From the NCBI GenBank assembly GCA_903895595.1, contig CAITUP010000144.1, forward strand, positions 1-48,519: 48,519 nt of DNA. Direction: 5' to 3'. Below, one piece after another: positions 35,624-42,335 of this stretch. The notes under the pieces are model-generated. The model saw nothing but the letters and a program-made list of their open reading frames with translations, was not told the origin of the DNA and ran no database searches. The translations under genes and the position numbers were made by a program. How positions within the stretch are numbered: position 1 is the first letter of the stretch; every line of letters begins with the position of its first letter. The stretch comes from an uncultured Acetobacteraceae bacterium. GTDB lineage: Bacteria > Pseudomonadota > Alphaproteobacteria > Acetobacterales > Acetobacteraceae.

Positions 35624-36442
35624 TTACCCCAACAGCGTGTCCAGCAGCGCCTGCCACGACTCCCGGTCCGGCGCGCAAATCAGCCCGCCGTCGATCCGCA
35701 TCGGATCGAAGCCGCGCCCGTCGAATTGCGCCGCATAGCCACCGGCTTCCCGGTGCAGCAGCCAACCCGGCGCGTGATCCCAGGGATACAAACGGTTGAA
35801 GAACAGGAAATGGCAGTGCCCGTCGGCCACCATCCGGTATTGATGCGCGGCGCAGCGGTAGTCCCACGATCCCGCCACTTTCGACAGATTGCCGCACACC
35901 ACGCCGCGACGCGGTTCGGGCAGAAACCGCCAGGATACATTGCCCGCCATTTCGCCGACCGGTGCCTTCACGCGCAGATCGCGGGTCGCGCCGGTGGCGG
36001 TTTCCATCCAGGCCCCCTCCCCTCGCAACGCCAGCGCGTGGTCGTCTCCGACCGGGTCGTGGATGGCGCTGGCGACGACTTCCCCGCGCACGATCGCCGC
36101 CGCCATCACGCCGAACAACGGCAGGCCGGCGGCGAAATTGGCGGTGCCGTCGACGGGATCGACCACAAACGCCAACTCCGCGTCTTTCAGGGTGTTCAAC
36201 AAAGACGGATCGGCCGTCGCCGCTTCCTCCCCCACCACGATGCAGCCGGGGAACAGACGGCGCAGGCCGGCGGTGATCAGGCGTTCGGCGGCCTCATCCG
36301 CCTCGGTCACCAGATCGAGCGGGCCGGATTTCGCGCGCACGCTGCCGGCTTCAAGGTTACGAAAACGCGGCATGATCTCGCGCTGCCCGGCCTCGCGCAG
36401 CAGGGCCGCGACATCGGCGAGTTGATGCCGAGAGAATGTCAT
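35624..36442 (-). CDS. Inositol-monophosphatase family phosphatase
   Basis: 272 residues. The Mg/Li-sensitive phosphatase motifs are GEEA (71-74), DPVDGTANF (95-103) and YPWDHAPGWLLHREAGG near residue 220. Members hydrolyse inositol phosphates, histidinol phosphate, fructose-1,6-bisphosphate or PAP. The P-W-D-x-A-P-G motif is usual, so activity is expected; the substrate is not certain. It overlaps the hflX stop by four bases (ATGA), so it is the last gene of an hfq-hflX unit. Confidence 0.9.
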   Translation of the reverse strand: MTFSRHQLADVAALLREAGQREIMPRFRNLEAGSVRAKSGPLDLVTEADEAAERLITAGLRRLFPGCIVVGEEAATADPSLLNTLKDAELAFVVDPVDGTANFAAGLPLFGVMAAAIVRGEVVASAIHDPVGDDHALALRGEGAWMETATGATRDLRVKAPVGEMAGNVSWRFLPEPRRGVVCGNLSKVAGSWDYRCAAHQYRMVADGHCHFLFFNRLYPWDHAPGWLLHREAGGYAAQFDGRGFDPMRIDGGLICAPDRESWQALLDTLLG

Positions 36443-38173: not shown

Positions 38174-38818
38174 TCAGGCAAGCAAGCGAAGTTCAGCGGC
38201 GAGGTGGTATGCGGAAGGGAAATGGATATCCGGCGCGGCGTTTTCAACGCCCCCATCGTGGGAAGCATCGCCGACCAGAACCGCCGTCACCCCGGCGGCG
38301 CGTGCGGCGACCATATCCAGCGCGGTATCGCCCAAATACCAGACCGACCGGTCGGCCTGGCGACCCAGTTTCTCCAGCGCCAGGAAGATGGGCGCGGGAC
38401 TCGGCTTGTCGGCGGAGGCGTCGCCGGCCCCGATGACGGTGCCGAAGTGACGGTCCCAGCCCAAATGGGCGACCTCCGCGCGCAGATAGGCGCCGGCCTT
38501 GTTCGACACCACGCCCTGCGTCCACGCCGCGCCGGCTTCCAGGGCAGCCGTGACATCGGGCATCGGCTGCACGTAGCTCAGATGGTTATCCTTGAACGCA
38601 GCGTAGAAGACGTCGCGCGCTTCCTCCCATCGGTCGCCGAACATCGGCGGGAAGCTTTCCTTCAACGCGACTCGGACCCGCTGTTTGGTCTCCTCGACCG
38701 TCCAAAGCGGCTTGCCGAACGCCTGGAACGTCGCGTTGAGGGCGCCGGCAATCGCGGCCCAGCCATCGACCAGGGTGTTGTCCCAATCGTACAGCAACAG
38801 CGACGGACGGTCCGTCAC
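38174..38818 (-). CDS. HAD-family phosphatase (phosphoglycolate-phosphatase-like)
   Basis: 214 residues from a GTG (38818) that overlaps the stop of the upstream gene (GTGA). HAD motifs: LLLYDWDNTLVDG (catalytic Asp11, Asp13), VVSNKAGAYL (motif II Ser-Asn), the Lys in GDASADKPSPAPIFLALEKL, and YLGDTALDMVAARAAGV (motif IV). A helical cap sits between motifs I and II. It dephosphorylates a small molecule. Coupled translation with the unknown protein upstream suggests a shared pathway, perhaps in surface sugar metabolism; that is inference. Confidence 0.88.
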   Translation of the reverse strand: MTDRPSLLLYDWDNTLVDGWAAIAGALNATFQAFGKPLWTVEETKQRVRVALKESFPPMFGDRWEEARDVFYAAFKDNHLSYVQPMPDVTAALEAGAAWTQGVVSNKAGAYLRAEVAHLGWDRHFGTVIGAGDASADKPSPAPIFLALEKLGRQADRSVWYLGDTALDMVAARAAGVTAVLVGDASHDGGVENAAPDIHFPSAYHLAAELRLLA

Positions 38819-40017
38819 GTCGCGCCCCGCCCAAGGCGGGCGAGCACAACCGCATTGGCGCACACCTTCAACCACCCGTCGAACGAGAAATCATGCGCGT
38901 TCTCATCCGTGGCAAAGCGGTCGATATAGCCCTTCAGCAACCCCGGCATCACGACTTCCACGGTGCCGGCCGGCCGGGCGCGTCCGGCCGGCACGACCCA
39001 TAGCAGCGTATTGTTGCCATGGCGCCGCAGGGACAGGAACAGCGGGAGGATTTCCTCTTCCGGGACCGGCGTATTGCGCTTGTAGATGAAAATCTTCTCG
39101 GCGATTTCCAGCTCTTCCAGGAATTTCCGGCGCAGGAACTTCAAACGCGCGGCTTCCTGTTCGCGCATCAGCCAAGGACTGCGCTCTCCCTCGTACACGA
39201 AGGTGTGATAGACGAGGCCATACTTCTTTTCATGGACCATGAACTCCCGCGGCGCGTCGCCTTGCAGCCGCGGGTCGACGTCGTCGTCCTCGCCGATCCC
39301 GGCGAAGCCGTCGTCCAGCCCACGGATCAGGCTGCGCAGGAAGGTACTGGAAAACCGCAATAGGCCCAGCGGTTCCGACTCGCAGCGGCGCTGGACCAAC
39401 CCGTATTCGCAGTTCTCCCCCAGGCTTTCGAACTGCAGCGCCAGCGCCGGGAGATCGAGCCCGGTGCGTTCGGCGACCCACGCCGCCAAGTCGGCCGGCG
39501 GACGGTCCTTGAAATCGTGGCTATCGCCGCCGCTGATCATCACGCCCCGCGGCGCCCTCCACGCTCGGTCGGCGTCATCCTGGACCACACGGTAAAGCCG
39601 CATTTCCACCAGGGAGAACGCCAGTTGCCGCTGATCCGTGGTGGCGAGAAACTCCGAAGGCAAGACGGCGTCGGGATGTTGCAGCACGATCCGGATGGCA
39701 CCCGTCCCGCGCAGCAGGTGACCGGGGACCCGGTAGCCAAGCAGAGTCGGGCGAGAAAGGGCAGACGATCCGACGACCGAACCGTTGACAGACACGATGA
39801 TACGCTGGGCCGGCAGTTCGGGAGCATGCACGAAGGGAATGACATCGAGTTGTAGCACGTAATCGTCATCGGGCGCGATATCGCGCAGCACGACGTGGCT
39901 TTCCGTCCCGATGGCCCAGGTAAACCCTGCCTCAGGCTGAGCCCAACCGCCATCCAGGTAGCCGAGGCTGTTGCCCTCGGCCCTGAAGTCGATCACGAGT
40001 GCGAGTTCAGCCCCCAT
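38815..40017 (-). CDS. Two-domain protein of unknown function with beta-rich N-terminal module
   Basis: 400 residues. Residues about 15-145 form a beta-rich module (GYLDGGWAQPEAGFTWAIGT, then LPAQRIIVSVNGSVVGSSAL, and LLRGTGAIRIVLQHPDAVLP) that also ends the sulfotransferase upstream. The C-terminal part has ALQFESLGENCEYGLVQRRC, then LGLLRFSS, a motif I associate with polysaccharide-related proteins of Acetobacteraceae, and later a Lys/Arg-rich helix (ARLKFLRRKFLEELEIAEKI). No signal peptide or membrane helix. GTGA overlap with the HAD gene. Function unknown; a role in surface glycan modification is a guess from context. Confidence 0.72.
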   Translation of the reverse strand: MGAELALVIDFRAEGNSLGYLDGGWAQPEAGFTWAIGTESHVVLRDIAPDDDYVLQLDVIPFVHAPELPAQRIIVSVNGSVVGSSALSRPTLLGYRVPGHLLRGTGAIRIVLQHPDAVLPSEFLATTDQRQLAFSLVEMRLYRVVQDDADRAWRAPRGVMISGGDSHDFKDRPPADLAAWVAERTGLDLPALALQFESLGENCEYGLVQRRCESEPLGLLRFSSTFLRSLIRGLDDGFAGIGEDDDVDPRLQGDAPREFMVHEKKYGLVYHTFVYEGERSPWLMREQEAARLKFLRRKFLEELEIAEKIFIYKRNTPVPEEEILPLFLSLRRHGNNTLLWVVPAGRARPAGTVEVVMPGLLKGYIDRFATDENAHDFSFDGWLKVCANAVVLARLGRGAT

Positions 40018-40193
40018 CCCGAACGAACCAATTCCCCTCTATATGACAGCCTGCACACCCTAACGTGCCGTGTATCCGACTTTCGTATACAAAATTGCAA
40101 CCCTGACGAATGTCAGGATATGTCAAGCGACTTCATTAACGCATATCGCTCTCAAAAATTCCACAGGCCCCCATGAAATCGCGAGGCAGCCGA

Positions 40194-41918
40194 TCAGCGT
40201 CCATGCACTTGATAAAGCACAATCTTGTGCAGCGCGAAACCCAGCAGCCGTTCATCGTCGAAACCGTTGATGTCGCGTGGGCGCGCCGCATCCGGAAGCC
40301 GCAGCGAAAGCGCCACCGGCTCGTTCGGCGGCAGCAAGCCGGCGGGAAACTCGCACTCGATCACGGATATCCTGGTCAAACGGGCGACTCCAAGGCGCTT
40401 GTCGCCAGCCCAAACCTCGACCCGCTGCGCGGGCAGCTTTTCCTCGGACACAAACGGGCTTCCGACGATTCGCAGGACACATAGGTCGGCGTCCGGCAAC
40501 GCCGGCAGGCTTAACCGGCTCACAGGCGCGTTGGTCCAGGTAAACGTGCGCTCGGTTACCGACCAGCCATCCAACTGATAGCCGGCCCCCTCTCCGCCGA
40601 CGCCGAACGCGATGGAGGTCACCAACTCCATCCATGGCGCACCCGGCGCGGCTTGCGGCGCGGGATCCAGATAGCGTTCGATCAGGTCCGGATCGTCCAA
40701 TGCCAGAAGGTCGCGATCCTCCCCCTGATCGGCTTGCGGCTCTTCCGGTGCGGGAGCCTGCGGGGCCGCGGTCTTGGGCGGAACGCCGGTCATCAGCGAC
40801 GCCCCAGCCAGACGGGCGAGCTGCACGCCGGTGACCGACGCCCCACCGGTCTGTTCCAACGCCCAGGAGACCATGTCGAACAGCTTCTGGTCTTCCGCCA
40901 CCCTGTCGCGCAAAGCGCCCGCGTAGAGCCACCGCAAGTCGCCGCGGGTCAGGATCGCTTCGGATCTGTTGTGGCGGGCGCTGCTGCCGATGTTCCAGCG
41001 TTCTTGCAACCAGCGTTCGTACAGAGCCGTCGTGGTGATTTCCACGTCATGCACAACAAGACGGTCGATCGCCGATGCATATGTCCCCCTCATCCCCCGC
41101 CCCAGGTAAATGCATGCCCGATTGGGCTGGGTGATTTCCGGATGCATCAGCGCTCGGGATGCCAGTTCCTTCAGTTCGCGATCCCCGATATCGGCCGGCA
41201 ATCGGGGAATCTCCAGATATTGCAGTATCTCCGCTGTGTCGGGTGCGGTGCCCAGCGGGTCCTGTCGCAACCGGCCGATGGCGTAGTTCGCCTGCGACAG
41301 CATCTGCCCGAGCGGATCGCGGATTACGGTGAATATGCGGTCGCCGGCGCGGATGCCGGCATCGCCGACGTAACTGCCGAGTTCCATGTGGCCGTAGACG
41401 AAGAACCGCTCGTGGAACGGCAACTGACGGCAAATGCCGCCAACCGTTGCCAGAAACTCTTCCTCGGACAGCCAACCCTCGAGCTCCAGCATCCTGGGGA
41501 GCGGCAGCCCGCGAGTCGCGAGGTTGAAGATCAGGTCGGTGCCAGCACATTTGGGCACGTGAATGAAGATGTCCCGGCCCATGGCGCGAAACGTGGACAG
41601 GAGATTGCGCATGATTCCACGGCGGAACTCGCCGCTGGTCAGTGCGGCGCGAAACTGTGCCGGTGCATCGAAATCGGCTTCCGGCACCGCCATGGCAGGG
41701 TCGTCCGGTGCCCGTCCGAGCACCGCTAAGAAGATGTCAATCGGCGCGATACCGCTGAAATCGAGCATGCCGATCAGATCGCCGATGCTCCGGTTCGGTG
41801 CCAGATAGGTCAGCAGACCGAACAACGCCTGTTGCGATCTCGGCATCGGAATGCGGCGTTCCGGTAGTGCGAGCATGATGTCGCGCTGTGTCTCGGGGAG
41901 CGGACTATGTGCGGTCAT
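40194..41918 (-). CDS. Sulfotransferase-family protein with C-terminal beta-rich module
   Basis: 574 residues. Residues 60-105 (IFLAVLGRAPDDP, FRAALTSGEFRRGI) resemble a DUF4214-like helical segment. Residues 115-320 are sulfotransferase-like: IFIHVPKCAGTDLIFNL (5'-PAPS site, 120-127) and IFTVIRDPLGQMLSQANYAI (Arg200 and Ser208, 3'-PAPS site). After a Pro/Ala linker (380-430), residues 440-574 form the same beta-rich module found at the start of the next gene (YQLDGWSVTERTFTWTNAPV, LPAQRVEVWAGDKRLGVARL). It may sulfate a surface polysaccharide. It is separated by 176 AT-richer bases from the downstream gene. Confidence 0.75.
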   Translation of the reverse strand: MTAHSPLPETQRDIMLALPERRIPMPRSQQALFGLLTYLAPNRSIGDLIGMLDFSGIAPIDIFLAVLGRAPDDPAMAVPEADFDAPAQFRAALTSGEFRRGIMRNLLSTFRAMGRDIFIHVPKCAGTDLIFNLATRGLPLPRMLELEGWLSEEEFLATVGGICRQLPFHERFFVYGHMELGSYVGDAGIRAGDRIFTVIRDPLGQMLSQANYAIGRLRQDPLGTAPDTAEILQYLEIPRLPADIGDRELKELASRALMHPEITQPNRACIYLGRGMRGTYASAIDRLVVHDVEITTTALYERWLQERWNIGSSARHNRSEAILTRGDLRWLYAGALRDRVAEDQKLFDMVSWALEQTGGASVTGVQLARLAGASLMTGVPPKTAAPQAPAPEEPQADQGEDRDLLALDDPDLIERYLDPAPQAAPGAPWMELVTSIAFGVGGEGAGYQLDGWSVTERTFTWTNAPVSRLSLPALPDADLCVLRIVGSPFVSEEKLPAQRVEVWAGDKRLGVARLTRISVIECEFPAGLLPPNEPVALSLRLPDAARPRDINGFDDERLLGFALHKIVLYQVHGR

Positions 41919-42078: not shown

Positions 42079-42330
42079 TCAACCGCCGCCGATCTTCGGG
42101 ATCAGCACAATCTCGCTGCCCGGCCGCAACTCGGCGCTGTAAGCATCCTGGAAAATCTCACCGTCGATAGCAACGGCCATGCTTTCTTCCACTTGCGTCC
42201 CCAATCCTGGAAAACGTTTCTCCAATTCCAGGATCAAGCGACGAAAGGTGGTCGCCTCCACCTCGAATTCCGTGACCCCGCCGGTAAGGGACAGAGATGC
42301 GGAACCCGAGGAGAGGACGACCGTAGGCAC
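42079..42330 (-). CDS. MoaD/ThiS-family small sulfur-carrier-like protein
   Basis: 83 residues. A ubiquitin-like beta-grasp fold is seen in VTEFEVEATTFRRLILELEK, then RFPGLG, and ends in IVLIPKIGGG with the C-terminal Gly-Gly that carries sulfur in MoaD. It lies five bases after a molybdenum hydroxylase large subunit, so a dedicated role in cofactor assembly or sulfuration of that enzyme is plausible. It could also be a SAMP-like modifier. It ends in GGG instead of GG. Confidence 0.8.
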   Translation of the reverse strand: MPTVVLSSGSASLSLTGGVTEFEVEATTFRRLILELEKRFPGLGTQVEESMAVAIDGEIFQDAYSAELRPGSEIVLIPKIGGG

Positions 42331-42335
42331 TTGGA

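What the first reader, a model, noticed from the sequence alone, without database searches (positions are those of the whole stretch)
38174..41918. Sulfotransferase locus with a module shared by two neighbouring genes
The C-terminal module of the sulfotransferase and the N-terminal module of the next protein align through LPAQR-I/V-x-V and the segments around it. A HAD phosphatase is coupled by GTGA overlap. The same binding module on different catalytic bodies suggests a surface-glycan sulfation and processing system whose parts recognise the same ligand. Gaps around the sulfotransferase gene are AT-richer than elsewhere.
Basis: partly seen in the sequence, partly recalled or inferred. Interest (0 to 1): 0.7.

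Follow-up and report, generated by a model that had tools for sequence, protein, structure and literature searches.

The report
Sulfotransferase and neighbour share sugar-binding-like module
Two neighbouring bacterial genes, one a probable sulfate-adding enzyme, carry the same small domain that looks like a sugar-binding fold, and related bacteria plug that domain into many sugar-modifying enzymes, so it may hold the sugar while the enzyme works on it.

Summary
In detail: residues 431-571 of the sulfotransferase-like protein and 4-144 of its neighbour are homologous (33% identity, E 1e-16). Neither protein matches a Pfam model alone; profile comparison places the parts. The module is a divergent relative of DUF7024, modelled as a jelly-roll like carbohydrate-binding modules. 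The first body is a divergent Sulfotransfer_2 enzyme with PAPS-site motifs. The second is a divergent relative of DUF1796 ('putative papain-like cysteine peptidase') with a conserved Cys and His.

The module is dispersed in Acetobacteraceae: 114 non-redundant open frames join it to sulfotransferases, WcbI-like enzymes, glycosyltransferases, methyltransferases, carrier domains and, most often, the DUF1796-like body. In other genera sulfotransferase, module and DUF1796-like body form one chain (4 frames), which supports joint action of the window's two genes.

Not supported: a shared ligand (the two modules are old paralogues that follow their bodies), a surface location, a glycan gene cluster here, or a special role of the HAD, which is conserved with or without the sulfotransferase. 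New variant of a known kind, moderate interest.

The parts
40194..41918 (-). sulfotransferase-like protein with C-terminal module (P0001, 574 aa)
   Evidence: full-length relatives in 6 other genomes of 33 in the genus sample
40749..41843 (-). sulfotransferase body (about residues 26-390), divergent Sulfotransfer_2-like
   Evidence: hhalign of 19-row alignment A3 against 14 PF03567 members: probability 97.9%, E 3.4e-13 over 110 columns; no Pfam hit on its own
41538..41555 (-). PKCAGT, residues 122-127, the expected 5'-phosphosulfate loop of PAPS sites (motif name recalled)
   Evidence: kept in 17 of 19 aligned rows; lost in fused L039 and L040
41295..41321 (-). RDPLGQMLS, residues 200-208, the expected 3'-phosphate site (motif name recalled)
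   Evidence: kept in 17 of 19 aligned rows
40206..40628 (-). module A, residues 431-571 of P0001
   Evidence: modelled as beta-sandwich, pLDDT of ten-residue blocks 61-87 except 50 at 541-560
38815..40017 (-). module plus DUF1796-like protein (P0002, 400 aa)
   Evidence: P0002-type orthologue in 27 further genus genomes
39586..40008 (-). module B, residues 4-144 of P0002
   Evidence: modelled as beta-sandwich, pLDDT of ten-residue blocks 63-82 except 48 at 61-70 and 43 at 121-130
38842..39471 (-). DUF1796-like body (residues about 183-392) with conserved Cys203, Gln209, His271, Trp382
   Evidence: hhalign of 31-row A2 against 6 DUF1796 members: 94.8%, E 5.5e-8; conservation; structure not resolved, pLDDT under 50 from residue 148 on
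38174..38818 (-). HAD phosphatase, GTGA overlap with P0002
   Evidence: PF13419 96.2 bits, cut-off 23.8; beside P0002 and HflX in 25 of 27 other genus loci, the other two cut by contig ends

Best explanation
P0001 is most likely a cytosolic PAPS-dependent sulfotransferase whose C-terminal DUF7024-like jelly-roll holds a saccharide acceptor (a lipid-linked or nucleotide-linked glycan, or a nascent polymer) near the active site. P0002 carries a related jelly-roll on a DUF1796-like body with a conserved Cys-His pair, and probably acts on the same class of acceptor, before or after sulfation, or presents it. The two genes are the split form of a three-part protein (sulfotransferase, module, DUF1796-like body) that other Acetobacteraceae encode as one chain. 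Shown here: homology of the modules, the family placement of each part, motif conservation, dispersal of the module and the fusions. Inferred: sugar binding, cytosolic site, PAPS use, joint action. Unknown: acceptor, chemistry of the DUF1796-like body.
For: Module homology. Module profile A1 (61 rows) against 7 DUF7024 members including intermediates: 98.4%, E 8.6e-15; against four canonical enterobacterial members alone 68%, E 5e-5. Foldseek of both models gives BcsB first and also CBM22; the P0002 model further gives CBM36, CBM6, CBM35 and CBM27; E 2e-5 to 1e-3. Body placements, with unrelated pairings at or below 1% in the same calls. Fused frames: sulfotransferase-module-DUF1796-like body L037, L039, L040, and L038 with two modules and cut at the contig end; the same order with a Sulfotransfer_3-type body in L047, with KTGT-type bodies (sulfotransferase by motif only) in L105 and L113, and with a WcbI body in L110. 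Bodies with the module by Pfam over cut-off: Sulfotransfer_3, WcbI (L110), Glyco_tranf_2_4, TylF, Methyltransf_11, PP-binding. Outside the family the module profile lands at the C-terminal ends of three DUF6311 proteins, a GT4 enzyme and an NTP_transf_5 protein. A GlcNAc 2-epimerase gene stands divergently beside the fused gene in L066. APS kinase is present in 32 of 33 genus genomes including this one. In 5 of the 7 genus genomes with the full-length gene it lies at this same spot.
Against: No significant sequence relative among solved structures for either protein or for the three profiles, and both bodies modelled poorly. P0002 is common without the sulfotransferase: it is in 28 of 33 genus genomes against 7 for the full-length sulfotransferase. 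The two modules are old paralogues. No glycan cluster here. Both PAPS-site motifs are lost in two of the four fused chains, so some fusions are unlikely to be sulfotransferases. The jelly-roll matches also include receptor, toxin and other non-sugar domains. P0001 has one 19-residue stretch (49-67) of mean hydropathy 1.8, which contains two Asp but is above a usual membrane mark of 1.6 (mark recalled), so the cytosolic place is not proved. APS kinase is nearly universal and so tests nothing by itself. The DUF1796-like body also occurs without the module: in 3 of the 5 copies found in this genome and in all 3 loci fetched from outside the family.
Confidence: 0.5

Rival explanations
1. The module is a docking domain: jelly-rolls of this family bind each other or a common scaffold and bring glycan-tailoring enzymes together, without binding sugar themselves.
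For: It occurs at either end and in tandem, on chemically unrelated bodies, and joined to carrier-protein domains. It stands between two catalytic bodies in fusions. Few columns are kept at 90% or more: F4, G17, W18, E22, W27, Q64, P108, R123.
Against: The folds it matches include many carbohydrate-binding modules, and DUF7024 relatives sit on glycosyltransferases (61, 64, 89). BcsB, the best match, is itself seen as a multimer in the matched entries, so the fold evidence does not exclude docking.
Confidence: 0.25
2. The adjacency is incidental: the sulfotransferase gene was inserted into a variable spot between a conserved P0002-HAD-hfq-hflX block and a molybdo-hydroxylase set, and only shares a common dispersed module with its neighbour.
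For: P0002 with HAD and HflX is found in 25 of 27 other genus loci (two cut by contig ends), only 2 of which also hold the sulfotransferase. The spot holds other genes in G032, an AMP-ligase and a two-module protein. Module tree. In G014 and G015 the gene lies elsewhere.
Against: Five of seven full-length genes sit here, two of them beside the HAD where P0002 is missing (76). Fusions of the same three parts in other genera (79) are hard to credit to chance.
Confidence: 0.2
3. The DUF1796-like body is a glycan- or thioester-handling acyl transferase or hydrolase (Cys-His) rather than a peptidase, so the pair belongs to a carrier-linked decoration pathway.
For: Cys in 29 of 31 and His in 26 of 31, both in 7 of 7 DUF1796 members (two of them nearly identical); the two rows without Cys also lack His (Fisher p 0.02, rows related). 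In a second locus a bodyB-module gene lies with WcbI genes and an FkbH_N-type gene (22 and 23.8 bits in two genomes, cut-off 27), and an ACP-like gene was scored in one of the loci viewed (69, 90). The Pfam label 'papain-like' is itself only putative.
Against: No carrier protein or CoA enzyme was recognised beside the window's pair. Fold not modelled.
Confidence: 0.15

Closest known systems
DUF7024 (PF22895), ends of DUF6311 and glycosyltransferase proteins
   Same: length, beta-sandwich, GW..E..W.W start and D-R-L-G end; profile match 98.4%; placed at an end of glycan enzymes
   Different: the window's modules have no DUF7024 hit and the best of 61 copies is E 0.003; on soluble-looking tailoring enzymes instead of membrane glycosyltransferases
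Sulfotransfer_2 (PF03567)
   Same: PAPS-site loop and R..S motif; profile match 97.9%
   Different: no Pfam hit; extra N-terminal part and C-terminal module
DUF1796 (PF08795), putative papain-like cysteine peptidase
   Same: SLGxxC and a later His; profile match 94.8% over 180 columns
   Different: has EPLGLLRF where DUF1796 has a PFDW-like stretch; usually beside a module in the loci fetched
WcbI (PF18588), capsule enzyme
   Same: the same module occurs on WcbI-like proteins in this genome (26.8 bits, just under the cut-off 29.2) and relatives (L110, 52 bits)
   Different: WcbI itself is a CoA-binding protein without shown activity; its authors propose a partner that presents the acceptor (PMC4104973, abstract and passages seen)
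Carbohydrate-binding modules CBM22, CBM36, CBM6, CBM35
   Same: predicted fold
   Different: no sequence match; those are mostly on secreted hydrolases (recalled), these on enzymes without an evident signal

Membership tests
Sulfotransfer_2 (PF03567) | score over Pfam gathering cut-off | tested here: not met
   no hit for P0001 at E 10; 2 of 19 rows weakly, best 0.18
Sulfotransfer_2 (PF03567) | profile-level homology | tested here: met
   97.9%, E 3.4e-13 over 110 columns with both motifs aligned
Sulfotransfer_2 (PF03567) | PAPS-site loop PKxxG[TS] and R...S | tested here: met
   present in P0001; 17 of the 19 rows including it
Sulfotransfer_2 (PF03567) | PAPS-dependent sulfate transfer | not testable with these tools
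   no assay
Sulfotransfer_2 (PF03567) | P-loop alpha/beta fold | tested here: inconclusive
   body modelled mostly under pLDDT 50
DUF7024 (PF22895) | score over Pfam gathering cut-off | tested here: not met
   3 of 61 module copies at E up to 1, best 0.003; no hit for the two window proteins
DUF7024 (PF22895) | profile-level homology | tested here: met
   98.4% with intermediates, 97.6% against L139/L140, 68% against canonical members alone; module HMM finds the DUF7024 domains of L120, L140 and L200
carbohydrate-binding module | jelly-roll fold | tested here: met
   AF2 module parts and Foldseek, E 2e-5 to 1e-3, moderate pLDDT
carbohydrate-binding module | binds carbohydrate | not testable with these tools
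   no assay; aromatic binding face not analysed
DUF1796 (PF08795) | score over Pfam gathering cut-off | tested here: not met
   no hit for P0002; 3 of 31 weakly, best 0.045
DUF1796 (PF08795) | profile-level homology | tested here: met
   94.8%, E 5.5e-8 with 6 members, two of them nearly identical; only 20.6% with 2 members
DUF1796 (PF08795) | SLGxxC Cys and later His | tested here: met
   C 29 of 31, H 26 of 31; 7 of 7 in DUF1796
DUF1796 (PF08795) | peptidase activity | not testable with these tools
   name is putative in Pfam itself
HAD hydrolase (PF13419) | score over Pfam gathering cut-off | tested here: met
   96.2 bits, cut-off 23.8

The most novel reading that the evidence does not exclude
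Acetobacteraceae use one plug-in acceptor-presenting module for a whole set of cytosolic glycan-tailoring enzymes: sulfotransferases of more than one kind, WcbI-type acyltransferases, methyltransferases and glycosyltransferases. The DUF1796-like body is a second, shared catalytic partner of these enzymes. The module would then be the kind of acceptor-presenting partner that WcbI was proposed to need.
Probability: 0.25. Interest if true: 0.65.

Novelty: new variant of a known kind. Interest (0 to 1): 0.42.

Why it matters
Three protein parts that Pfam does not recognise here are tied to known superfamilies, and one of them is a dispersed module on many sugar-modifying enzymes. If the module presents the acceptor, the WcbI enzyme without known activity and the unlabelled DUF1796 and DUF7024 families become testable together. 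Sulfated glycans would then be expected in a bacterial family whose name occurs together with 'sulfotransferase' in only 3 papers of the held library (listing only).

Tried and rejected
Same-ligand reading: the module tree (124 rows, 132 columns, many unresolved forks) groups the 7 sulfotransferase modules (97/94) and, apart from them, 24 P0002-type modules (100/99); I therefore do not claim a shared ligand. HAD as part of the system: it stays with HflX in loci with and without the sulfotransferase. Horizontal island: gene GC is 63.7% and 63.9% against 64.0% for the window, so composition gives no sign of it. KTGT-type bodies (L050, L105, L113) as sulfotransferases: only the motif GLPKTGT (recalled) supports it; profile comparison to PF03567 gave 0.1% and Pfam gave nothing for L105. 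That is a weak test, since the Sulfotransfer_3-type bodies, two of which Pfam does recognise, reached only 8.3% in the same comparison. Solved relatives by sequence: none significant. NCBIfam on the 61 modules: single weak hits only. Plasmid relatives of P0001: none at E 1e-5. DUF1796 in the window's relatives: 0 of 40, so members came from another family of the class. Structures of the two bodies: too poor to use. Literature: DUF1796, DUF7024 and DUF6311 occur in 0 papers of the held library; WcbI with domain and sulfotransferase 0; three further searches gave 3, 1 and 1 papers, none on this subject by their listings. Subscription papers are not held.

Limits of counts. The 114 open frames come from 119 loci held (two, L001 and L002, left out as copies of the window), nearly all chosen because they matched P0001; they are not a random sample, some frames are fragments, body labels come from BLAST clusters of which ten frames were checked in Pfam, and places listed were fetched only in part. 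In one search at most 4, at most 9 and at most 10 candidates per genome were scored. In one search the Hfq query was shortened by my script to an inner Met, so I give no Hfq counts. For the DUF7024 comparison one of 8 loci (L141) gave no sequence and was dropped; for DUF1796, L144 was not used, and L157 was left out of the profile (6 members) but kept (7 members). Names of hfq, TetR, HlyD-like and molybdo-hydroxylase genes are by eye.
Full report
What is there. On the - strand lie a 574-aa gene (40194-41918), a 400-aa gene (38815-40017) and a HAD gene (38174-38818), the last two overlapping by GTGA. The C-terminal part of the first and the N-terminal part of the second align without a gap over 141 residues, 33% identical, E 1e-16 for one comparison, and E 1.4e-13 in a search of the whole genome.

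What the parts are. On their own the first two proteins match no Pfam model at E 10 and no NCBIfam model at E 1. I therefore built alignments from related loci: 61 module copies (A1), 31 second bodies (A2) and 19 first bodies (A3), and compared them by hhalign with members of the families that gave the faint Pfam hints. Module against 7 DUF7024 members: 98.4%, E 8.6e-15; against L139/L140 alone 97.6%; against four canonical enterobacterial members alone 68%, E 5e-5. First body against 14 Sulfotransfer_2 members: 97.9%, E 3.4e-13, with the PKCAGT and RDP...S stretches aligned. Second body against DUF1796 members: 94.8%, E 5.5e-8 with six members, only 20.6% with two. The E-values are for single pairs; unrelated pairings in the same two calls gave at most 1%.

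Fold. AlphaFold2 modelled the module parts of both proteins as beta-sandwiches with strands in the same order; the bodies stayed mostly under pLDDT 50. Foldseek against the PDB gave, for both, the cellulose-synthase subunit BcsB first and also CBM22; for the P0002 model further CBM36, CBM6, CBM35 and CBM27, at E 2e-5 to 1e-3. The two alignments share rows, so agreement is expected; the hits include other jelly-rolls as well, among them receptor and toxin domains, so the fold is shown and the ligand is not.

Motifs. The loop PKxxG[TS] and R-x-P with a following Ser are kept in 17 of 19 first bodies; the two without are in fused proteins L039 and L040. In the second body Cys is kept in 29 of 31 and His in 26 of 31; both rows without Cys lack His too (Fisher p 0.02, with related rows); all 7 DUF1796 members have both. 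This fits a Cys-His site and does not show its chemistry. The highest 19-residue hydropathy means are 1.8 (P0001, residues 49-67, with two Asp inside), 1.1 (P0002) and 1.4 (HAD). No signal or membrane predictor was run. A cytosolic place is likely by this and by PAPS use, but not shown.

Dispersal. A search with P0001 matched 33 of 33 genomes of the genus sample and 77 of 299 of the family sample, mostly through the module. Open frames with the module in the loci held number 135, or 114 after removing contained duplicates. Their architectures: 49 module-bodyB, 11 bodyB-module, 10 module-module-bodyB, 8 module with no labelled body (one, in L114, has a methyltransferase by Pfam), 8 module-WcbI, 7 sulfotransferase-module, 3 module-GT2, 2 Sulfotransfer_3-module-ACP, 2 Sulfotransfer_3-module, 2 TylF-module, and the fusions and single forms below. 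Ten frames were checked in Pfam; the WcbI score of the window's own genome copy (26.8 bits) lies just under the cut-off of 29.2. In the class sample the module profile matched 13 of 385 genomes including this one. Of eight proteins from that search scanned in Pfam, three had DUF6311 (L190, L193, L200), one GT4 (L189), one NTP_transf_5 (L192) and three nothing (L191, which is of the window's family, L195, L198); DUF7024 was over its cut-off in one (L200). Two DUF7024 proteins scanned beside them (L120, L140) are also found by the module HMM.

Fusions. Four frames carry sulfotransferase body, module and DUF1796-like body in one chain: L037, L039, L040, and L038 with two modules and cut at the contig end. 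One Sulfotransfer_3-type body (L047), two KTGT-type (L105, L113; sulfotransferase by motif only) and one WcbI body (in L110) show the same order. The remaining single forms are module-bodyB-module-bodyB, bodyB-module-module, module-module and one cut KTGT-module frame. The tree needs four changes for the fused label and well-supported branches force at least two (25 of 500 label shuffles are as low), so fusion probably happened more than once. This is the best evidence that the window's neighbours act together.

Gene order. P0002-type genes were found in 27 further genomes of the genus (27 loci). HAD and HflX follow in 25; the other two lie at contig ends. Full-length sulfotransferase genes are in 7 of 33 genus genomes. 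Two others share the window's order (G013, G022). In G001 and G004 the gene stands directly beside the HAD and no P0002 is seen there. In G014 and G015 it lies elsewhere, beside TetR- and HlyD-like genes, in G014 also near the molybdo-hydroxylase gene (names by eye). So the sulfotransferase is the variable partner at a conserved place.

A second pair. In this genome a WcbI-like gene with the module lies with a second WcbI gene (47.7 bits, over the cut-off), a frame-broken bodyB-module gene, and an FkbH_N-like gene under the cut-off. G013 has the same order with an ACP-like gene between; in G014 the gene between WcbI-module and bodyB-module looks FkbH-like by eye but gave no Pfam hit. A WcbI-cluster gene with the module and a bodyB-module gene share one fetched locus in 7 genomes: G000, G007, G013, G014, G017, G020, G032. 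Thus two neighbouring genes with the module recur in a different enzymatic setting.

Mechanism and weight. Most likely P0001 sulfates a sugar held by its jelly-roll, and P0002 acts on or presents the same class of acceptor (0.5). A docking role of the module (0.25) or an incidental adjacency (0.2) are live rivals. PAPS can probably be made, since an APS kinase is in 32 of 33 genus genomes including this one, but that is not specific.

Compared with the literature. WcbI was reported to bind CoA, to show no activity in three assays, and was proposed to need a partner that presents the acceptor (PMC4104973, abstract and passages seen). The module seen here on WcbI-like proteins is a candidate for such a device; this is inference. 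DUF1796, DUF7024 and DUF6311 are named in no paper of the held library.

Noticed in passing
G000:C38 (L074 3198-8851): Second module locus in the same genome: WcbI-like gene with module, a second WcbI gene, a bodyB-module gene broken by a frame change inside its module (or a sequencing error), and an FkbH_N-like gene.
   Followed up: partly
L039, L040: Fused sulfotransferase-module-bodyB proteins whose sulfotransferase part has lost both PAPS-site motifs: probable pseudo-enzymes.
   Followed up: partly
L018, L020: Sulfotransfer_3-type body, module and a C-terminal carrier-protein domain in one chain; PP-binding was scored by Pfam in L018, L020 is by cluster.
   Followed up: no
L120 1-2697: Protein with four tandem DUF7024-like copies, an intermediate between DUF7024 and the module.
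   Followed up: partly
L064 (G001:C188): Three sulfotransferase-body genes in a row, the last with the module, followed by the HAD.
   Followed up: no
window 42079-42333: Small ThiS-family protein (PF02597, E 2.4e-8) just upstream of the sulfotransferase gene and beside a molybdo-hydroxylase gene set (the latter by eye).
   Followed up: no
window 35624-36442: Inositol monophosphatase-family gene (PF00459) in the HAD-hfq-hflX run; such phosphatases can act on the PAP by-product of sulfation (recalled), but a similar gene (by eye) lies near HflX in L004 and L077, where this sulfotransferase was not found.
   Followed up: no
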